From positions 1 to 64,000 of the forward strand of contig MKUE01000124.1 of the NCBI GenBank assembly GCA_001897675.1: a stretch of 64,000 nt of DNA, read 5' to 3'. The stretch comes from Thiobacillus sp. 65-1059. GTDB taxonomy: Bacteria; Pseudomonadota; Gammaproteobacteria; Burkholderiales; Thiobacillaceae. Below are positions 42,722-51,196 of this stretch, piece by piece. Below the pieces are notes generated by a model. It was not told the DNA's origin, did no database searches, and saw only the letters and a program-made list of their open reading frames with translations. How positions within the stretch are numbered: position 1 is the first letter of the stretch; every line of letters starts with the position of its first letter. The position numbers and the translations under genes were made by a program.

Positions 42722-43036
42722 TCAACCGATGACGGCTTCGGCGGAGTTCTTGTCGCCTTTGTTGTCGACCCAGTTGACGACGACCTTGTCGCCTTTCTTG
42801 GGCCCCTTGACCTTGAAACCCAGGTAGGGGTTCTTGGAGATGCCGGTGCCGAAGTCGGCGTTCAGCACCGCGGCGCCGTTGATGGTGGCCGTCACGTCCT
42901 GAATGAAGTGGGCGGGCACCAGCTGGCCGGTTTTGGCGTCTTTGCGCAGGCCGGTTTCCATCGGGTGGTTTCTCAACACTTTGACGTCGGCGACGTCGCC
43001 TGCCATGGTGGCGCGGATACGCATGGGTTCAGCCAT
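42722..43036 (-). CDS. soxZ: Sulfur carrier complex subunit SoxZ
   Basis: A 104-residue periplasmic protein forming the SoxYZ sulfur-carrier with SoxY. The immunoglobulin-like fold signatures are present: PMRIRATMAGDVADVKVLRNHPMETG, HFIQDVT and KKGDKVVVNW. No signal peptide is seen; SoxZ is exported with the Tat substrate SoxY. It lies 58 bases after soxY and before a strong hairpin. Confidence 0.96.
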   Translation of the reverse strand: MAEPMRIRATMAGDVADVKVLRNHPMETGLRKDAKTGQLVPAHFIQDVTATINGAAVLNADFGTGISKNPYLGFKVKGPKKGDKVVVNWVDNKGDKNSAEAVIG

Positions 43037-43094
43037 TTGGCTTTCCTTTCTAAAAAGAATTCAGTTCAACGAATGATGTCCGGCCAGGCCGGGA

Positions 43095-43562
43095 TCAGCC
43101 GCCGCAGCCGCCGACGGTGACCTTGACTTCCTTGGCCGCGGTGTAGGACTTGCCGCCGGCGTTGACCACCGCACGGATAAACGAAGTCTGAGCCACCTTG
43201 ATGCGGGTGGCGATGTAGCCCTGGGCGCCGCCCGACAGGGTGTAGGAGCCGACCAGGGGGGTGCCGTTCTTTTCGGCAAAAATGGCGATGCCGGTCGTGC
43301 CGGCGATGCTGCTGGTGACTTCCACCGGCACAACCGAACCGTTCTCGGCGATGTCCGGCATCTTGATGGCGATCTCCTTGCTGTCGGCTGGGCCGGCAAC
43401 GCCGAGCCCCTTCATCGCGTCGCCGACGTTCTTGGCCTCGAAGGCGGCCTTGTTCCAGGCGGCCATCGCCTGGGTGGGCTTCAGCAGGCCGGCGGCCACG
43501 GCGATGGCCACGGTGCCTGCGCCTGCGGCGCCTTTCAGTACGTTTCTACGAAGTGCATTCAT
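43095..43562 (-). CDS. soxY: Sulfur carrier subunit SoxY
   Basis: Periplasmic carrier to which SoxXA attaches thiosulfate; 155 residues. The N-terminus has a Tat-type pattern (RRNVLKGAAGAGTVAIAV). The C-terminus is the flexible swinging arm GGCGG with the sulfur-bearing C153, the hallmark of SoxY. A sigma-54 promoter and a palindrome lie upstream. It is separated from the soxAX-porin unit by a terminator. Confidence 0.97.
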   Translation of the reverse strand: MNALRRNVLKGAAGAGTVAIAVAAGLLKPTQAMAAWNKAAFEAKNVGDAMKGLGVAGPADSKEIAIKMPDIAENGSVVPVEVTSSIAGTTGIAIFAEKNGTPLVGSYTLSGGAQGYIATRIKVAQTSFIRAVVNAGGKSYTAAKEVKVTVGGCGG

Positions 43563-43698
43563 TTGCCTATCTCCTTTTAAATAGCAAAATCATCAATATT
43601 CCCGGAGTTACCGTTTTCCATATTCAAGCTATTGAAATAACCTGTTTTTTGAATGGGAGATTGAGCAATTCACAATTTCCCCAACCGACCCATGATTA

Positions 43699-43713
43699 GC
43701 AAACACCATGCCA
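43699..43713 (-). promoter_or_regulatory. Sigma-54 promoter of soxYZ
   Basis: The minus-strand sequence TGGCATGGTGTTTGC, followed by T, matches the RpoN consensus TGGCACG-N4-TTGCW with one mismatch, and it has the exact GG-N10-GC spacing. The expected start is near 43687, about 125 bases before the soxY ATG. It shares the GGTGT spacer with the soxA promoter. Confidence 0.8.
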
Positions 43714-43788
43714 AGCAACGAATCAAAACCAAGGCATTGATAACAATCAAAAATATTTTTCACGCCTCGAACCGTAAAAATCCAGCCA

Positions 43789-43801
43789 TGGCGTAACGCC
43801 A
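43789..43801. promoter_or_regulatory. Candidate activator site (TGGCGTAACGCCA) upstream of soxYZ
   Basis: A 13-bp palindrome (six-base arms around a central A) begins 76 bases upstream of the -24 element of the soxY sigma-54 promoter. A nearly identical element occupies the matching place upstream of soxA. Position and symmetry are those expected of a bacterial enhancer-binding protein, most likely the adjacent NtrC-type regulator. Confidence 0.6.
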
Positions 43802-43950
43802 GTCCCTTTGGCCTTGCATCTGGAGAAATGGGACACTGCAGGCACCGTGTTCTTTCAGGGCACCCTTTGCAGCGCAGCGCTTGAATTACCCTGCGCTCCC
43901 CACATAGTCCTCGCATCGCAAAATCCGGGTACCCCGATACCGGCGGGAAG

Positions 43951-43976
43951 CAAAAAAAACCGCCCCGAAGGGCGGC
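43951..43976 (-). terminator. Rho-independent terminator of the porin (soxAX) transcript
   Basis: Arms CCGCCC and GGGCGG with a CGAA loop; in the minus-strand direction the stem is followed by a run of eight T residues. It lies about 70 bases after the porin stop, and separates the soxAX-porin unit from the soxYZ promoter. Confidence 0.9.
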
Positions 43977-44043
43977 AGAAGGCATAACACATCAGAAACA
44001 TCGATTTTCCCGATGCGTTATGGAGGAGGCTGTTGATAGAGCG

Positions 44044-45207
44044 TTACATGATTTTCTTGGCAAAAGGCACCGTGACACGGACGGTGAAAATATTGTCTTC
44101 AATCGTATTGTTGTCGTTCCGGATACGGTCTGCCTGGTATTGCAGGCGAATTCCGCGGTCAAGACGCTGAGTCAGGCCCAGCGAGGTTTCCTGGAATGTA
44201 TTGCTGCTCAGGGAAGTATTCGGGTCATATTCGGAATAGCGCGCCACCGCCTCCCATTTCGGAGTCAATTTATAACCGAGCGAAAGCTCATAGCCCTTGG
44301 CCTTCAGATCGGCAGCACCGCCTAGGGCTTCATCCTTGCCGGTCATGACTTCGCCCCAGGCCCACCACTTGTCCTTGGCAAAGTCGTTGTAGCGCAGCAC
44401 GAAGGCATGGCGTTCGCGGTCGAGTTCCGGCCCCCCGTTGATCTGCGCGCTGCCGAGCCGCAAGCCGTAATGCGCCCAGATCGATCCCTTGTGAAACTCC
44501 AGGCTGCCGTTGAAGTCTTTTTGGTCGCCTTCATCCTGCTGCTTGACGCCCGTGCTGTTGTAGACGCCGGCGGTATAGGTCAGGCTGCTGTCGCTGCCCA
44601 GGTTGACCTGATTGAAAGCCATGATGCCGGTCTTGAAGATGTTGGTCACGACTTCACCGCCATCCGCCGTGCAGCCGATCGAGCCGCAACCATAGAGTTG
44701 CGAAGTCATGCGGGTGTAGTTGACCCATGGCGCAATTCCGGCCGGAACGTAAAAGGCATGGCCGAACGGGACGATCACGGACCCCACCTGAATATTGGTC
44801 ACGTCGAGGACATCGCGGAAGGTGGCGCTGGCGCGAAAGACGCGCGCACTGCCGTTGGCGGCAGAAGTGACCCCGTTGCGCGCCCATTCGGTGACGACCA
44901 GATAATCCACGTCTTTGGTGATGCTGCCTTTCATGTACCAGCGCAGGCGCTGGAATGAAAACTCGCTCTTGTCGGACGCCGCATTCTTGCTGTCGGTCAG
45001 CGTGAAAGTGGGCTGCATCTCGACGCCCATGGTCATGGTGACGTCGTCTGAAGGCGCGGACTCGCGTCCGTACAGCATGGGCCAGGCCTTGTAGGAATCG
45101 ACCTTGGCTTCCGCCTCGGCCTGGGCTGCCTGGTGGAACAAGGACATCCCCGTAAGGCACAGCGCCGACAAGGTGTATTGGGTAAGCTTTTTCGAAGAAT
45201 CAGTCAT
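44044..45207 (-). CDS. Outer-membrane porin-like protein in the sox cluster
   Basis: A 387-residue protein from the ATG at 45207, which follows an AAGGAAA site. The signal peptide ends near HQAAQA. The rest is a run of amphipathic strands with aromatic residues (VDYLVVTEWARNGV, GHAFYVPAGIAPW, LSLGYKLTPKWEAVARYSEYD), typical of OprP- or OprO-like trimeric porins. No close family name is sure. It follows soxX after 59 bases, with a hairpin (CCGCGC/GCGCGG at 45221-45236) just before its ribosome binding site. It may admit thiosulfate or other sulfur anions; that is inference. Confidence 0.65.
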   Translation of the reverse strand: MTDSSKKLTQYTLSALCLTGMSLFHQAAQAEAEAKVDSYKAWPMLYGRESAPSDDVTMTMGVEMQPTFTLTDSKNAASDKSEFSFQRLRWYMKGSITKDVDYLVVTEWARNGVTSAANGSARVFRASATFRDVLDVTNIQVGSVIVPFGHAFYVPAGIAPWVNYTRMTSQLYGCGSIGCTADGGEVVTNIFKTGIMAFNQVNLGSDSSLTYTAGVYNSTGVKQQDEGDQKDFNGSLEFHKGSIWAHYGLRLGSAQINGGPELDRERHAFVLRYNDFAKDKWWAWGEVMTGKDEALGGAADLKAKGYELSLGYKLTPKWEAVARYSEYDPNTSLSSNTFQETSLGLTQRLDRGIRLQYQADRIRNDNNTIEDNIFTVRVTVPFAKKIM

Positions 45208-45266
45208 TTTGATTTCCTTTCCGCGCGTTGGCGCGGGATTGCGATCGTTGTCCGGGAAACGCGTAT

Positions 45267-45764
45267 TCACTTGGTGTACAGGAATGCCATGACATCCTGG
45301 ATATCCTGGTCGGTCAGCACCTTGTTCGGGCCATAAACGGGCATGAAGGCATTCGGGTTGTAGAAGCGGACATCCCAGAGACGCTGATAGGTGTAGTCCA
45401 GCGGCATTTCCCGATGCGCATACCCCTTCAAGCTGGGGCCGATGCTGCCGCCTTCATGCTTGGGCAGCGCATGACAGGCAATGCAGTTCCCCCAACGCAG
45501 GTTGGTTGCGATTTTCTCGCCCCGTTCCGCGTCCCCTTTGAGCGGGCCCTTGAACTCGACACGCTCCACCGGCGGCGAGGTCATTTTTCCGCAGGGCAGG
45601 TCGTAGTCGTGGCAAGGAAAGTTCTTGAGCAGTTCGCGCGGATACTGTTCGCCGGGAACCCACTTCGGCGCCTCCTCGGCCGAGCTGGGAGCGATTGCGC
45701 CAACGGTCAGAGAACCCGCCAGCACAAGCAGTGGCAGATAACGCTGTTTGAAGCCAAATTTCAT
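45267..45764 (-). CDS. soxX: Sulfur oxidation c-type cytochrome SoxX
   Basis: Monoheme subunit of the SoxXA complex, which couples thiosulfate to the SoxY cysteine; 165 residues. A signal peptide ends near SSAEE. The heme site is CIACH (residues 94-98), and the likely axial Met is M141 in AFMPVYG. An extra N-terminal pair, C51 and C58, may form a disulfide. It lies 43 bases after soxA, so the two are in one unit. Confidence 0.95.
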   Translation of the reverse strand: MKFGFKQRYLPLLVLAGSLTVGAIAPSSAEEAPKWVPGEQYPRELLKNFPCHDYDLPCGKMTSPPVERVEFKGPLKGDAERGEKIATNLRWGNCIACHALPKHEGGSIGPSLKGYAHREMPLDYTYQRLWDVRFYNPNAFMPVYGPNKVLTDQDIQDVMAFLYTK

Positions 45765-45807
45765 GTCAGTTTTCCTTTTTAATCAGTTGCGGCAGCGAAG
45801 ATTCGCT

Positions 45808-46755
45808 TCAATCCAGATAGCTGGTATCCATGTTGTATTCCGCGACCGGGACACTCATCTTGTAGCCATTCGCCGATGCCTTGAGGAACACCTCGATATC
45901 CGTCATGGCGGGGCTGCCCTCCTCCCCCGGATAGATGCGCGACAGAATCTGGCAGGACTTGATCTGGTGCTGAAGGGTGAAGACGTACTCGAAGTCGTCG
46001 CCCGGCAACGAGTAGGGGAAGTGATAGATGGGGTACTGGGCGGCGTCGCCGAAGAAAGTAGTCGGACGCTGGCCGCGCAGATACTTGCCTGCGGCCGGCG
46101 GGGTATGGCAGCTCGCGCAGGCAAAGTTGAAGTGCCCGCCGCGCTTGAAGAACAGATCGCGGCCCCGTTCATAGGACGCCTTGATCGGGCCCGGAGAGGT
46201 GGCATCGATCTTCACGACCTTGCCATCCGACAGGGAGCCGACGAAGAAGTCGATCAGCGTGTTCTGACGCGTGTTCTCCTTCCAGTCGAAACCGAGCCGC
46301 TCGGTCGCGCAGGCTTTGATCTGCGTGGGGACGGTCACGACACGCTTCAGGCGCTTGTTGTAGGCGGGGTAGTTTGCGTATATCCCCTTGAGCTTTTTCC
46401 CCTCTGCGCCGTGGCAGGAAGCGCAGGATTGCCCCTTGGCATTCTTCTCGTTGTAATACCCCCTGCCGATGTCGATCGCGCCTTCCGCGTCGAAGCTTTT
46501 GACTGCCCAGCGGAAATCCTTGTAGTTCATCTCATGGGACATCTTTCCGCTTTTCTTGGCGTCTTCAAGCGCCTTCTCATCCTTCCAGTATTGATAGGTA
46601 TTCGAGAACTTCGCGTCCCCCGAAACGTGGGGGATCGCCAGCTCCTTGCCTGGCATGTAATCGAATTTCGGGTACTCCTCGGCGCTTGCCGGAAGCGCGG
46701 CGGCAGCAAGGCAAGCGCCAAATGCCAGCAATTTGAGTTTTCTTGGAATGTTCAT
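45808..46755 (-). CDS. soxA: Sulfur oxidation diheme cytochrome SoxA
   Basis: Catalytic subunit of SoxXA, in the periplasm; 315 residues from the ATG at 46755. A signal peptide ends at PASAEE. Two CASCH heme motifs are visible (residues 111-115 and 213-217), so this is a diheme SoxA. The single Cys in KSCQILSRIY (C268) is the expected thiolate ligand of the active-site heme and site of the persulfide. C149 is a further free Cys that may ligate the other heme. It is the first gene of the soxA-soxX-porin unit, under a sigma-54 promoter. Confidence 0.96.
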   Translation of the reverse strand: MNIPRKLKLLAFGACLAAAALPASAEEYPKFDYMPGKELAIPHVSGDAKFSNTYQYWKDEKALEDAKKSGKMSHEMNYKDFRWAVKSFDAEGAIDIGRGYYNEKNAKGQSCASCHGAEGKKLKGIYANYPAYNKRLKRVVTVPTQIKACATERLGFDWKENTRQNTLIDFFVGSLSDGKVVKIDATSPGPIKASYERGRDLFFKRGGHFNFACASCHTPPAAGKYLRGQRPTTFFGDAAQYPIYHFPYSLPGDDFEYVFTLQHQIKSCQILSRIYPGEEGSPAMTDIEVFLKASANGYKMSVPVAEYNMDTSYLD

Positions 46756-46837
46756 AGCCTCTCCATTAATTGAAACAAACGAGTCGGGCGGAAGATCGCT
46801 GTTGCCGCCCGAGTCGCGTCCACCCGACAGGCTTAAA

Positions 46838-46852
46838 GCAGACACCGTGCCA
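46838..46852 (-). promoter_or_regulatory. Sigma-54 promoter of soxAX
   Basis: The minus-strand sequence TGGCACGGTGTCTGC, followed by T, matches the RpoN consensus with one mismatch (CTGC for TTGC) and correct GG-N10-GC spacing. The start is expected near 46826, about 70 bases before the soxA ATG. It is nearly identical to the soxY promoter. Confidence 0.82.
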
Positions 46853-46928
46853 CCAGCGAAGCAAGGCAATAATCAATTGAAAACAAAGGGAAAATTAAAA
46901 AAGCGCCCGGCCATCCAGGCGCCGCCAC

Positions 46929-46941
46929 TGGCGTATCGCCC
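46929..46941. promoter_or_regulatory. Candidate activator site (TGGCGTATCGCCC) upstream of soxA
   Basis: This element shares TGGCGTA-W-CGCC with the palindrome upstream of soxY and begins 77 bases above the -24 element, one base different from the soxY spacing. It is the best candidate enhancer site for the NtrC-type regulator encoded alongside. Confidence 0.6.
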
Positions 46942-47054
46942 ATCGCCCAGGCCAGGGCATGGGAGAAACGCCATAGCGCGCGCGTGTGCCGTTTTTTCCG
47001 GATGCCCGGCCGATAGCCCGCGAGCTTGACGCTGGCCGCAGGATGAGACTAAGG

Positions 47055-47069
47055 TGGTCCGCAGATTGC
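47055..47069 (+). promoter_or_regulatory. Possible sigma-54 promoter of the regulator operon
   Basis: The plus strand has TGGTCCGCAGATTGC, with correct GG-N10-GC spacing and an intact TTGC but two mismatches in the -24 part. The start would be near 47081, 19 bases before the regulator ATG. GG-N10-GC is frequent in GC-rich DNA, so this is tentative. If real, the regulator could activate its own gene through the shared upstream site. Confidence 0.35.
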
Positions 47070-47099
47070 GTTTTAATGACTTGGCTTCTTCCCGGTTCC

Positions 47100-48476
47100 A
47101 TGTGCCCTCCTGATCCAAAAGACATATCCCAGCCTCCCGAACCGATCGGTGCGTACAAGGTTTTGATCATTGATGACGAACCGGAAATCGCACGCATACT
47201 CGGGCGCGTGATACAGACCTGCGGCGACTTTCAGGTCGCCGTCCGGGTCGGCAAGTTCGATCTGGAGCACGAACTCGCCGCGCTTGAGCCGACCCTGATA
47301 TTCCTCGATCTGGTGATGCCGGATTTCGATGGATTCGAGGTATTGAGCCGGATTCAAGGCATCCTGCCGGACACCCCGGTTGTGGTCGTTAGCGCATATT
47401 CCACCATCGAAAATGCCGTACGCGCAGTGAAACTGGGGGCATTCGACTTCCTGCCGAAACCCTTCGATCCCGAGTCCGTGCAGCTGATCGTCGCCAAGCT
47501 CGAACAGGACCTGGTGCTGCGCGCGCGTTGCGAAGCCCTCAAACGCTCCCTGCTGGGCCAGGACGGATACCTGCGCAGCATCAACGGCCAGAGCGCAGCC
47601 ATCGAGCGCCTGCATAGCTGGATTCTGCGCGTGCGCCATACGCGCGCGAGCGTGCTGATCGAAGGCGAAAGCGGCACCGGCAAGGAATTGGTCGCGCGCG
47701 CGATACACGCCGACCAAGGGCCTTTCGTGGCGGTCAACATGGCAGCCATTCCCGATGAGCTGGCCGATTCCGAACTGTTCGGCCATCGGCGCGGCGCCTT
47801 TACCGGCGCCACCCAGGACCGCAAGGGCCTATTGTGCGAGGCGCATGGCGGGACCTTGTTCCTGGACGAAGTGAACTCCATGTCGCCCCTGATTCAAGCC
47901 AAGCTGTTGCGCGTCATCCAGGAAAGACGGGTGCGGCCCGTCGGGGGCGACAAGGAGCAGGAAGTCGACTTCCGCATCATTTCCGCCACCAACGAGAAAC
48001 TGGAGAAAATGGTGCAGGACGGCGGGTTCCGCCGCGACCTTTATCATCGCCTGCGCGTGCTGGGAACCACGCTGCCGCCGCTGCGTGAGCGCATCGAAGA
48101 CATACCGCTGCTTGCCCAGCAATTCATGCAGCACTACAGCCGCGCCCACGGCAAACGGGTGCGCCAGATCCGCTCCGATGCGCTGTACTACCTGCAGCAG
48201 ATGGCATGGCCGGGCAACGTGCGTGAACTCGAAAACCTGATCGAGGCGGCGGTGATTCTGTGCGAAGACTCGGCCCAGGAAATCACGCTGCCCATGCTGA
48301 ACCACATTGCGCGGGGAGAAGTCGTGGCGGAGGAAACCGGGCAGGACACGATCTTGACGCTGGCCGAAGCGGAGCGGATCCATGTCCGGCGCATCCTCGA
48401 AATGACGTCGGGCAACAAGACCCATGCCGCCCGGCTGTTAGGCATCGATTACAAGACGCTATTGCGCAGGCTGTAG
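47100..48476 (+). CDS. Sigma-54-dependent NtrC-family response regulator (candidate sox activator)
   Basis: A 458-residue cytoplasmic activator with the full NtrC layout. The receiver domain (about residues 19-130) has the acidic pocket D25-D26, phospho-acceptor D70 in LIFLDLVMP and K120. The AAA+ domain has Walker A GESGTGKE (189-196), the sigma-54 contacting loop GAFTGA (232-237) and Walker B FLDEV. A Fis-type helix-turn-helix ends the protein (NKTHAARLLGIDYKTLLRR). The ATG at 47100 is used; ATG at 47076 is also open. It is divergent from soxA and co-transcribed with the Tat-exported binding-like protein. Confidence 0.93.
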   Translation: MCPPDPKDISQPPEPIGAYKVLIIDDEPEIARILGRVIQTCGDFQVAVRVGKFDLEHELAALEPTLIFLDLVMPDFDGFEVLSRIQGILPDTPVVVVSAYSTIENAVRAVKLGAFDFLPKPFDPESVQLIVAKLEQDLVLRARCEALKRSLLGQDGYLRSINGQSAAIERLHSWILRVRHTRASVLIEGESGTGKELVARAIHADQGPFVAVNMAAIPDELADSELFGHRRGAFTGATQDRKGLLCEAHGGTLFLDEVNSMSPLIQAKLLRVIQERRVRPVGGDKEQEVDFRIISATNEKLEKMVQDGGFRRDLYHRLRVLGTTLPPLRERIEDIPLLAQQFMQHYSRAHGKRVRQIRSDALYYLQQMAWPGNVRELENLIEAAVILCEDSAQEITLPMLNHIARGEVVAEETGQDTILTLAEAERIHVRRILEMTSGNKTHAARLLGIDYKTLLRRL

Positions 48477-48495: not shown

Positions 48496-49512
48496 ATGGC
48501 GAAAATGCGGGATTTTGCGCGCGGAAGAAGAAGGTTTCTCACCGCATTGGGCGGATTGGGAATGAGCGGCCTCGCGCTGAGCCTCGGCGCTGCGACCCGG
48601 CGCGAAACAGCACTGGACCGATTCGAGGGCGTCGTCGACAGAAACCTGTGCATCTCGCCCTCGTCCATGCCGGCATTGCGCATCGATCCTGCCGCCCTGC
48701 CGAAAGACCTGACTTTCGTTGGCACCCGATTGCTGAAACTGGGCTTTCTGGACGAGATCGCCCAACTTTACGGGAAGCGCACCGGAAACCGGGTCAGGGT
48801 GATCGGCGATGGATGCGATGGCGGCCTACTCGCAACGCGGTCGGGCAAGGCCCACTTCGGCGAATTATGCTGCCCGGTTCCGGATTCACCCGCCGCCGGC
48901 ATGCGCTGGCTGCCCGTGGCGCAAGACATGAAAGTGGTACTGACCTCGCCCGACAACCCGGTGCACGACATCAGTCTTGCCAACCTGCGCAAGGCGGCGA
49001 CCGGCGAAGTCCGGAACTGGCGCGAATTGGGGGGGGCCGACCGGCCGATCGCGTTCATCGTGCACAACCACTGCCCGCCTTATCTTGAACCTGTACGTAC
49101 CGTCCTGCTCGATGGCGGAAAAACCTGGTCGAAGCACGCCATGCGGTCCAACACCGACACCGACCACTTGCGCCATCTGGCGCGCTTTCGACCGTCCCTG
49201 GGGGTCGACAGCTGGGTGCTCGCCGCTCCCTACGTCAAGCGGGGCCAGCTCAAGGTCCTCAGCGTCGACGGCGTCATGCCAAGCGTTCACAGCGTTTCGC
49301 GCGGGGATTATCCGCTGAGCGGTCCGCTCAACCTTATCTTCGCGCTGTGGATGGATGACTTGATGCGGCCATTCCTGGATTTCATCTACAGCGAGGAGGG
49401 GCAACGGATCATCGCCAGAAACGCGGTCCCCGTGAGCGGCATACAGGCCGCCAAACTGGGCGATGCGCCGGAATACATCCGGGGATCGAAAAGCGGTACG
49501 CTCAAGGGCTAG
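48496..49512 (+). CDS. Tat-exported PBP-like (phosphate-binding-like) protein, probable periplasmic sensor partner
   Basis: A 338-residue protein beginning with a Tat signal: R12-R13 followed by F14-L15 in RRRFLTALGG. The rest has the fold pattern of PstS-like binding proteins (FVGTRLLKLGFLDEIAQLY, DISLANLRKAATGEVRNWRELGG, FLDFIYSEEGQRII). Five cysteines (C52, C107, C125, C126, C193), including an adjacent pair, are unusual for such a protein and suggest binding of a sulfur species or a folded metal site; that is inference. It lies 19 bases after the regulator and overlaps the end of the convergent kinase gene by 11 bases. No permease or ATPase is nearby, so transport seems unlikely. Confidence 0.8.
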   Translation: MAKMRDFARGRRRFLTALGGLGMSGLALSLGAATRRETALDRFEGVVDRNLCISPSSMPALRIDPAALPKDLTFVGTRLLKLGFLDEIAQLYGKRTGNRVRVIGDGCDGGLLATRSGKAHFGELCCPVPDSPAAGMRWLPVAQDMKVVLTSPDNPVHDISLANLRKAATGEVRNWRELGGADRPIAFIVHNHCPPYLEPVRTVLLDGGKTWSKHAMRSNTDTDHLRHLARFRPSLGVDSWVLAAPYVKRGQLKVLSVDGVMPSVHSVSRGDYPLSGPLNLIFALWMDDLMRPFLDFIYSEEGQRIIARNAVPVSGIQAAKLGDAPEYIRGSKSGTLKG

Positions 49513-51196
49513 GTTTGAGCCATACCGTGATGCCGCCGTTTGCGGCATCGGTGACCCGGATGTCGCCGCCATGCGCTTGCGCAATGGCACCGGCATTTGA
49601 AAGTCCCAGGCCCGTGCCGGTCGGTTTGGTCGTGAAGAACAGTTCGAAAGCCCTCTTCGCTTCGTCATCCGTGAAGCCCTTGCCGTAGTCGGTAAAGCGA
49701 ATGAAGTAGCGGCCATCCGGATCGGCGCCGATGACCACCTCGACAATCTGGTTTCCATTGGCCTCGAAGGCATTGTCCAGAATGTTGTCCACCATCTGCT
49801 CGAGCTGATAGCGGTCGCCCCTGGTGAAGTAGGGTCCGCCCGGCTGCAAGATCAAGTTGATCTTCGTCTCGTAATTCAGGTGCTGCCGCCTTTCCTGGTA
49901 GGCAAGCATGCAAGCGCCGAGTTCGATGGTTTCTATCTTCAGCTTGGCAGGCTTGCCAAAACGCAGCAGGTTGTCGATGGTCGAAGAGCAGCGGGTGCAG
50001 TAGTGCAGGATCAGATCGATCTCGGCGAGCAACTCGGGCTGGTTGGCGAAGCCCGGCTTCAACAGGTGGGCCGTGTTTTTGATCACCGTCATTGGATTGT
50101 TCAGATCGTGCGCCACCCGCATCGCCACCCTGCCCACGGCGGACAGTTTCTCCTGAGCGTGCATCTCGGCTTCCAACTGCCGCAGGCGCGACAGATGCCG
50201 AATCATGTCGTTGAAGGCGTTGACCAGTTGCCGAACTTCGCCGTGGCCACCGATTTTCAGGAGATTGAGCTGATCCGTCTTGATCTGTTCCGGCAGGTGG
50301 CCGACCGCCGCCGTCAATTGCCTGACCGGCGTCAACACGCGATGCAGGTAAATCGCGATGGCAATGGCAAGCAGCACGGCGCTAGCCAGGAGGGTCAATG
50401 CAATCAGACGCTTGGTGTGCGCCAGCACCTCGCGTGCCGGATCGGCGACGACGATATCGAGTGCCTGTATGTCATTTCCCGGAGACCAGACCGGAATGCG
50501 TATCGACGATGGCGGCTGCGGCCTGCCGGCCTGGACCGGATGCAGGGTCAGGCGCTCGTCGGACAGGATGGTCGCGTTCCCCCGCGTGCTGGTCTGGCGG
50601 CCCAGTTGAACCCAGCCGGTGATATCGTCGCCGACGATGATCGGCGTGGAGGAAATCACCCAGAGCTTTTCGTCGATCCAGGCCAGGGAAGCCCAGGTCT
50701 TGAGGGCAGTCCGTTTATCCTTCGGCATGCGGGCCAGCGCTTCGTTGCCCGCCGCAACGAGCCTGCCCGACGTGTCCCAGACTGCAAGCCACTCCAGGCG
50801 AAACGCTTTGGCTATGCGATTGAGGTCCGCCCGCAAGGGCACGGCCTCCCCATCCAGGTAAAAATGATATTGCGCGCTTTGCCGTAAATCGGAGTCGGCC
50901 ACCACAAGCTGGGCTAGCGCCTCATAGGTGGTGAGTTCATCCTGAATCAACTGGTGGATCTGGCTGTTCTGAATGGCCACACGCTCATTGTGCAGCCGGC
51001 TGAACTGCTGGCTGACGAAGCCGTCGATCCCGTAAAACATGACTGCCGAGATCATGGCCAGTATGGCCAGAAGGCCGGCCACGGCGCGGAACATAAGACT
51101 GTCCGGCAGAATGCCGGCGCCTCGCCTGATCAAGCCGGGAATGCTCGCCATACCCCTGGACCCAGGGAGGCTGCCGTGCTGGAGGGTTTCGTGCAT
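49502..51196 (-). CDS. Membrane sensor histidine kinase (candidate partner of the sox activator)
   Basis: A 564-residue inner-membrane kinase. Helix 1 (about residues 35-56) and helix 2 (263-286) flank a periplasmic sensor of about 200 residues containing a Cache/PAS-like [17 protein letters not shown] stretch. A HAMP linker follows (RVLTPVRQLTAAVGHLPEQI). The phospho-acceptor is H363 in VAHDLNNPM. The ATPase boxes are N471 and N475 (NILDNAFEAN), DYGKGF and GTGLGLS. ATG at 51151 is an alternative start. It is convergent with the regulator-binding protein operon and overlaps its end, a compact arrangement that supports one system. Confidence 0.9.
   Translation of the reverse strand: MHETLQHGSLPGSRGMASIPGLIRRGAGILPDSLMFRAVAGLLAILAMISAVMFYGIDGFVSQQFSRLHNERVAIQNSQIHQLIQDELTTYEALAQLVVADSDLRQSAQYHFYLDGEAVPLRADLNRIAKAFRLEWLAVWDTSGRLVAAGNEALARMPKDKRTALKTWASLAWIDEKLWVISSTPIIVGDDITGWVQLGRQTSTRGNATILSDERLTLHPVQAGRPQPPSSIRIPVWSPGNDIQALDIVVADPAREVLAHTKRLIALTLLASAVLLAIAIAIYLHRVLTPVRQLTAAVGHLPEQIKTDQLNLLKIGGHGEVRQLVNAFNDMIRHLSRLRQLEAEMHAQEKLSAVGRVAMRVAHDLNNPMTVIKNTAHLLKPGFANQPELLAEIDLILHYCTRCSSTIDNLLRFGKPAKLKIETIELGACMLAYQERRQHLNYETKINLILQPGGPYFTRGDRYQLEQMVDNILDNAFEANGNQIVEVVIGADPDGRYFIRFTDYGKGFTDDEAKRAFELFFTTKPTGTGLGLSNAGAIAQAHGGDIRVTDAANGGITVWLKPSP

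What the first reader, a model, noticed from the sequence alone, without database searches (positions are those of the whole stretch)
43699..46941. Two sox units share a near-identical sigma-54 promoter and upstream palindrome
soxA and soxY each have a minus-strand RpoN-type promoter (TGGCACGGTGTCTGCT and TGGCATGGTGTTTGCT, 14 of 16 bases the same). Each also has TGGCGTA-W-CGCC starting 77 and 76 bases above the -24 element. The promoters and sites lie in unrelated surrounding sequence, so this looks like functional conservation. I know of no described RpoN control of sox genes, which are usually reported under SoxR-type repressors; that is from memory. A GGCGTAACGCC also occurs at the fur 3' end, which weakens the palindrome taken alone.
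Basis: partly seen in the sequence, partly recalled or inferred. Interest (0 to 1): 0.92.

Follow-up and report, generated by a model that had tools for sequence, protein, structure and literature searches.

The report
Paired enhancers switch sulfur-oxidation genes together
Two separate groups of sulfur-oxidation genes in this bacterium carry the same switch, a special (sigma-54) promoter with a pair of binding sites above it, which probably answers to the regulator protein encoded next door; it resembles, but is not shown to be the same lineage as, a sigma-54 sulfur switch already described in acid-loving bacteria.

Summary
In detail: two minus-strand sigma-54 promoters, 14/16 identical, the genome's only such sites (up to one mismatch), each with TGGCGTAWCGCC 76-77 bp above. 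Each palindrome is the lower half of a pair: a second, weaker site lies exactly 32 bp further up. The same module (two TGGC-N5-GCCA-type repeats 31-34 bp apart above a -24/-12 promoter) is the best-scoring place, upstream of a sox gene, in 18 of 23 loci scanned around orthologs of the NtrC-type regulator divergent from soxA. Both units keep it in Thiobacillus 65-1402 and strain SCN2. Best reading: this regulator, its kinase and a cysteine-rich PstS-like protein activate soxA-soxX-porin and soxYZ through RpoN. But this regulator is not an evident TspR ortholog: about 41% identical, outside a fully supported clade of 21, with another helix-turn-helix end and enhancer; an AU test does not exclude that they are sisters. 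New variant of a known kind. Binding, RpoN dependence and signal are inferred.

The parts
46837..46852 (-). sigma-54 type -24/-12 promoter of soxA-soxX-porin, TGGCACGGTGTCTGCT
   Evidence: 15 of 16 bases the same in G055
   Evidence: matrix score 10.2, rank 4 of 63,984; pair
46959..46975 (.). distal enhancer site of soxA, 32 bp above the proximal site
   Evidence: matrix score 10.0, rank 6 of 63,984; identical in G055
43698..43713 (-). sigma-54 type -24/-12 promoter of soxYZ, TGGCATGGTGTTTGCT
   Evidence: 15 of 16 bases the same in G055 and in SCN2
   Evidence: matrix score 12.6, rank 1 of 63,984; 16 of 17 bases identical in G055
43819..43835 (.). distal enhancer site of soxY, degenerate, 32 bp above the proximal site; shares AAATGGGACA with the published A. 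caldus TspR site
   Evidence: score 5.5, rank 44 of 63,984; 32 bp spacing
47100..48476 (+). NtrC-type response regulator (REC, sigma-54 AAA+ with GAFTGA, Fis-type HTH), divergent from soxA; proposed activator
   Evidence: Pfam; GAFTGA read in the translation; clade of 21 orthologs
48496..49512 (+). PstS-like periplasmic binding protein with four conserved cysteines; proposed sensor partner
49502..51196 (-). histidine kinase (HAMP, HisKA, HATPase) with an unassigned N-terminal sensor region; proposed cognate kinase
45808..46755 (-). soxA (divergent type)
   Evidence: TIGR04484 over cut-off
45267..45764 (-). soxX
   Evidence: TIGR04485 over cut-off
44044..45207 (-). outer-membrane porin-like gene (Porin_O_P match)
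43095..43562 (-). soxY, part of a near-copy of the genome's other soxYZ
42722..43036 (-). soxZ

Best explanation
The two sox units form one sigma-54 regulon. The response regulator encoded divergently from soxA (47100-48476), when phosphorylated by the kinase encoded next to it, binds as an oligomer to two inverted repeats (TGGC-N5-GCCA type) 32 bp apart, that is about three helical turns. Through its GAFTGA AAA+ domain and DNA looping it opens RNA polymerase-RpoN at the -24/-12 promoter about 88 bp below, giving the soxA-soxX-porin and soxYZ transcripts together. The PstS-like protein, whose conserved cysteines align with loop residues of PstS, probably delivers the signal (thiosulfate or another sulfane-sulfur species) to the kinase. 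Shown here: the motifs, spacing, conservation, gene neighbourhood and regulator clade. Inferred: binding, phosphorylation, RpoN dependence, operon extent, ligand.
For: Promoters unique in the genome. A matrix trained only on 12 promoters of other species ranks the four window sites 1, 4, 6 and 44 of 63,984 positions. Pair plus sigma-54 composite 37.6 and 37.0 against 9.8 for the next separate place in the window, 33.9 for 1.0 Mb of background and 27.7 for 40 Markov windows. In 18 of 23 scanned loci (own, near-own and twin loci counted) the best composite lies upstream of a sox gene. Both promoters recur in G055 and in SCN2, where RR and SoxA are 75% and 78% identical. Perfect N5-spaced repeats change on both arms together between lineages: TATGGC/GCCATA, TAGGTC/GACCTA, TGGGTC/GACCCA, TGGGGC/GCCCCA. 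HTH end YKTLLRKL or YKTLLRRL in all 21 orthologs and in none of the 10 other regulators with letters there (an eleventh ends before it). The 16 other perfect sigma-54 sites of the genome lie in stretches whose best composite is 19.0, and 5 other palindromes lack a partner. Genomic rpoN.
Against: No experiment. The soxY distal site is degenerate (rank 44). A sequence-only profile of the pair (R1) did not recover the window sites in the genome (only 150 of 1379 candidates were scored there) and put the soxA pair only third in the window at E 1.7, with the soxY pair matched by half at E 6.5. L079 and L082 have the regulator but no sox gene in the stretch held; L081 (only a soxZ fragment in the contig) and L090 (sox genes present) show no module. 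SCN2 soxY (33.6), L087 (31.2), L089 (30.2) and L086 (19.7) score below the highest background place (33.9). A single strong site (12.7) without pair or promoter lies about 400 bp above soxX of the genome's C129 sox cluster. The training sites were chosen by eye from the palindrome and the spacing.
Confidence: 0.82

Rival explanations
1. The regulator is an ortholog of A. caldus TspR and the pair is the TspR upstream activator sequence; nothing new beyond another TspS/TspR-sox cluster.
For: Same logic: sigma-54 two-component system beside sox (PMC6335251). The soxY distal site shares AAATGGGACA with the published site. The AU test does not reject TspR and the 21 orthologs as one clade (p 0.203).
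Against: The only 2 of 369 class genomes with the exact published site, both of one family, have it between the regulator and soxX of a tandem HK-RR-soxXYZA cluster. One of these regulators (G271), compared by BLASTP, is 38-43% identical to the 21 orthologs and scores higher against each of the 12 other regulators in that set (two long rows had been dropped). Different HTH end, no PstS-like hit in the two 18 kb stretches, and the published site is not among the five best matrix hits of the about 500 bp around it. That these are TspR is inferred from the site and gene order, not from a named record.
Confidence: 0.1
2. The sigma-54 promoters are real but the repeats bind another protein, or are terminators or DNA-structure features.
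For: In several relatives the repeats lie just below the regulator's stop codon, where terminators sit. No binding data.
Against: In the window the soxA pair lies between two divergent genes and the soxY pair about 200 bp below the porin's stop codon. The 31-34 bp spacing and a sigma-54 promoter below persist across species. No pair with promoter stands out in the genome's other sox clusters, C120 and C129 (best composites 11.9 and 8.5).
Confidence: 0.1
3. Chance likeness of GC-rich sequence.
For: The palindrome alone is common (7 in the genome) and sigma-54 matches with up to one mismatch number 158. Background places of 33.9 and 33.1 exist in 1.0 Mb.
Against: Two composites above all background in one 64 kb window, both before sox genes, both conserved; the soxY upstream region is 80% identical to G055 overall while its proximal site keeps 16 of 17 and its promoter 15 of 16 bases.
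Confidence: 0.02

Closest known systems
TspS/TspR sigma-54 two-component system of Acidithiobacillus caldus (sox-II cluster)
   Same: sigma-54-dependent NtrC-type regulator with kinase beside sox genes, upstream activator palindrome, -24/-12 promoter (PMC6335251, PMC12194929, passages)
   Different: regulator of another branch in the free tree (38-43% identity); enhancer TGGC-N5-GCCA in pairs instead of TGTCCCAAATGGGACA; kinase and regulator on opposite strands in the window instead of in tandem; PstS-like cysteine protein present; two promoters, one for a separate soxYZ
SoxR (ArsR-type) repressor of sox genes
   Same: controls sulfur-oxidation genes in response to sulfane sulfur (PMC10451225, search listing and start of abstract only)
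   Different: repressor, not a sigma-54 activator; not searched for in this genome
NtrC-type enhancer control (NtrC, ZraR, AtoC)
   Same: domain order; paired palindromic enhancers above a sigma-54 promoter (the enhancers from general knowledge)
   Different: target genes and binding site; none of the 25 NCBIfam models listed (of 106) reaches its cut-off
sigma-54 regulator beside the thiocyanate dehydrogenase cluster of Thioalkalivibrio thiocyanoxidans
   Same: kinase plus sigma-54 regulator beside sulfur-compound oxidation genes (PMC5744179, passages)
   Different: thiocyanate, not sox, genes; sequence not compared here

Membership tests
sigma-54 enhancer-binding response regulator | REC, sigma-54 AAA+ with GAFTGA, Fis-type HTH | tested here: met
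   GAFTGA read in the translation
sigma-54 promoter | TGGCAYG-N4-YTGCW | tested here: met
   (consensus recalled)
sigma-54 promoter | transcription start about 12 bp below GC, RpoN dependence | not testable with these tools
   needs start mapping and an rpoN mutant
TspS/TspR of A. caldus | regulator in the TspR branch | tested here: inconclusive
   outside the 100/100 clade of 21 in the free tree, BLASTP scores higher to the 12 other regulators; AU test p 0.203 does not exclude sisterhood
TspS/TspR of A. caldus | UAS TGTCCCAAATGGGACA | tested here: not met
   no exact match in G000; only a 10-base half in the soxY distal site
TspS/TspR of A. caldus | tandem kinase-regulator-soxXYZA order | tested here: not met
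TspS/TspR of A. caldus | kinase with sCache_3_2 sensor domain | tested here: inconclusive
   not listed for the window kinase; weak in SCN2 (E 0.07, below cut-off); feature from PMC12194929 section 17
TspS/TspR of A. caldus | response to thiosulfate | not testable with these tools
   needs expression data
SoxA / SoxX | NCBIfam equivalog over cut-off | tested here: met
   TIGR04484 148.5 against 110, TIGR04485 81.7 against 61
PstS phosphate-binding protein | PstS family score over cut-off | tested here: not met
   TIGR02136 49.2 against 206.6; cysteines at aligned loop positions

The most novel reading that the evidence does not exclude
A second sigma-54 sox switch, separate from TspS/TspR and spread through beta- and gammaproteobacterial sulfur oxidisers, in which a PstS-derived periplasmic protein has exchanged phosphate-binding residues for cysteines and senses thiosulfate or sulfane sulfur directly, passing the signal through the kinase to a regulator that fires paired enhancers. 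In this lineage a copy of the housekeeping soxYZ has been placed behind its own version of the same switch.
Probability: 0.35. Interest if true: 0.75.

Novelty: new variant of a known kind. Interest (0 to 1): 0.58.

Why it matters
How sulfur oxidisers sense thiosulfate is poorly known (so says the start of the abstract of PMC10451225). The conserved kinase, regulator and cysteine-rich binding protein, with a defined paired enhancer, give a testable candidate sensor and a motif with which to find its targets in Thiobacillus, Thioalkalivibrio and others. It also suggests, without proving it, that sigma-54 control was attached to sox genes more than once.

Tried and rejected
Palindrome alone as evidence: rejected, 7 genomic copies. 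Loose gapped pattern over 60 relatives: matches in 54 of 60 genomes, no use. Sequence-only covariance model R1 of the pair: failed to find the window sites genome-wide and gave only E 1.7 for the soxA pair in the window. First assumption that the regulator is TspR: dropped. Search for regulator orthologs with the L086 protein in the hope of reaching Acidithiobacillus: only the same genomes. Of 158 sigma-54 matches with up to one mismatch, the 18 exact and 12 of the 140 one-mismatch ones were examined; best composite outside the two sox promoters 19.0. Not examined: supplements, and the full text of Li et al. 2017 (not held; content known from reviews and recall, so I cannot exclude that its 'some chemolithotrophic bacteria' include members of this clade). 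Paper searches made; none of the listed titles or abstract starts tells of this regulator clade or this enhancer. The sigma-54 weight matrix was typed from recalled base preferences, not from a call.
Full report
Observation. The two promoters and the two palindromes are at the stated places. The promoters are the only two places in the 2.9 Mb genome that match TGGCAYGGTGTYTGCT with up to one mismatch. The palindrome alone is not special: seven exact copies in the genome.

Genes. On the minus strand lie soxA (46755-45808), soxX, a porin-like gene and, behind its own promoter, soxY and soxZ; on the plus strand, divergent from soxA, a response regulator with receiver, sigma-54 AAA+ and Fis-type HTH domains, then a PstS-like protein; then on the minus strand a histidine kinase. 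The genome has one match to the RpoN DNA-binding domain and one soxB, on another contig (C120). The other sox clusters, on C129 and C120, show no enhancer pair with sigma-54 promoter (best composites 8.5 and 11.9); a single site of score 12.7 lies about 400 bp above soxX of C129.

Relatives. The best matches to the regulator (E at most 1e-140) came from 6 of 100 relatives, own genome included, and 4 of 369 class genomes, own included. The named-genome scan kept 80 loci; identity falls from 51-98% (15 loci) to 42% or less (65 loci). The kinase was found in 20 of the 21 loci and the PstS-like protein in 17 of 21 (L089 starts too near its contig end to tell; L086, L087, L090 have no PstS-like hit).

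Enhancer. An inverted-repeat scan with a 5-base spacer found perfect 6-base arms at the expected place in L157 (two), L158, L061, L062, L063, L064, L080 and L088, among 14 promoters scanned; L157 also gave two unrelated perfect repeats and L087 one. The arms change together between lineages. Sites come in pairs 31-34 bp apart. A matrix from 21 sites in 12 promoters of other species (own and G055 excluded; sites chosen by eye) ranks the window's proximal soxY site 1, the proximal and distal soxA sites 4 and 6, and the distal soxY site 44 of 63,984 positions. Combined with a sigma-54 matrix (weights recalled), soxA scores 37.6 and soxY 37.0; the next separate place in the window 9.8. Controls: 112 other loci, 1,003,614 bases, best 33.9 and 33.1; 40 first-order Markov windows, best 27.7. 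Many of these background loci are neighbourhoods of other sigma-54 regulators, a hard control.

Tally over the 23 loci, with own-locus and near kin left out of the matrix: the best place lies upstream of a sox gene in 18 (window, L065, L066, L077, L078, L156, L157, L061, L062, L063, L064, L080, L083, L085, L088, L084, L086, L089; in L086 a porin-like gene stands between promoter and soxX, and its score is only 19.7). In L087 it lies before a porin-like gene of the kind that precedes soxX in L086. It fails in L079, L081, L082 and L090. L065 and L066 hold the same G055 soxA promoter, and L083 and L085 are near twins, so the number of independent cases is smaller.

Both promoters of the window recur in G055 (Thiobacillus sp. 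65-1402 by its contig) with spacing 89 and 87 and in Betaproteobacteria bacterium SCN2 with spacing 89 and 88; its soxY promoter TGGCATGGTGTTTGCA was never in the training set. In G055 the soxY upstream region is only 80% identical overall while the proximal site keeps 16 of 17 bases and the promoter 15 of 16; the distal site keeps 13 of 17.

Comparison with what is known. Reviews describe TspS/TspR, a sigma-54 two-component system on the sox-II cluster of A. caldus with UAS TGTCCCAAATGGGACA (PMC6335251, passages; also PMC12194929, passages and section 17; PMC10531304 and PMC5093147, passages). The original paper was not held. The exact site occurs in 2 of 369 class genomes, both of one family, between the regulator and soxX of a tandem kinase-regulator-soxXYZA cluster. 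I take these as TspR by site and gene order. One of the two regulators, compared by BLASTP, is 38-43% identical to the 21 orthologs and scores higher with each of the 12 other regulators in the set (parG088 and L097 were dropped as long branches and three own-genome paralogs added). The free tree keeps both outside the clade, but holding them together with it is not rejected (p 0.203). So: it works like TspS/TspR, and it is not shown to be TspS/TspR.

The sensor. The PstS-like protein matches solved phosphate-binding proteins by profile (best E 1.7e-22). Four cysteines are conserved in 16 sequences: one in 15 of 15 with letters there, three in 16 of 16. In the alignment to 4h1x one of them stands in the NGSSAG stretch and two at a Ser-Arg pair; that these are phosphate contacts in PstS is recalled. 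That the protein binds a sulfur compound is a guess from gene context.

soxYZ. The window soxYZ is 95.5% identical over 853 bp to the soxYZ of C120, with the likeness starting about 14 bases above the soxY start codon, and no likeness of the region above to C120. A copy of the housekeeping carrier genes, or gene conversion between the two, has thus put SoxYZ behind a sigma-54 promoter.

Noticed in passing
42726-43576: soxYZ is 95.5% identical to the genome's other soxYZ (C120:7127-7979); likeness covers the genes and about 14 bases above soxY only, so a recent copy or gene conversion.
   Followed up: partly
48496-49512: PstS-like protein with conserved cysteines (window: GDGCDGG, LCCP, HC; relatives mostly GGGCDDG) in 16 sequences; possible sulfur-compound sensor.
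   Followed up: partly
47055-47070: Weak plus-strand sigma-54-like site TGGTCCGCAGATTGCG between the enhancer pair and the regulator (score 8.0); possible autoregulation.
   Followed up: no
L088:3570-3619 and L082:3658-3707: A further strong enhancer pair before a YncE/cytochrome-D1-like beta-propeller gene near the kinase in Thioalkalivibrio, without a good sigma-54 match in the scanned range.
   Followed up: partly
L086:9835-10911 and L087:9585-10727: A Phenol_MetA_deg outer-membrane protein follows the promoter; in L086 it precedes soxXYZA and a probable soxB; the window has another kind of porin after soxX.
   Followed up: partly
L135:7565 and L120:5278: Similar pair plus sigma-54 composites (33.9, 33.1) near other sigma-54 regulators in unrelated bacteria.
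   Followed up: no
L067:5153-5169 (G000:C129): A single enhancer-like site (12.7) about 400 bp above soxX of the genome's C129 sox cluster, without partner or sigma-54 promoter.
   Followed up: partly
G000:C129:44091-44972, G000:C120:8253-8885: Two further sox clusters in the same genome, with one soxB in all.
   Followed up: partly
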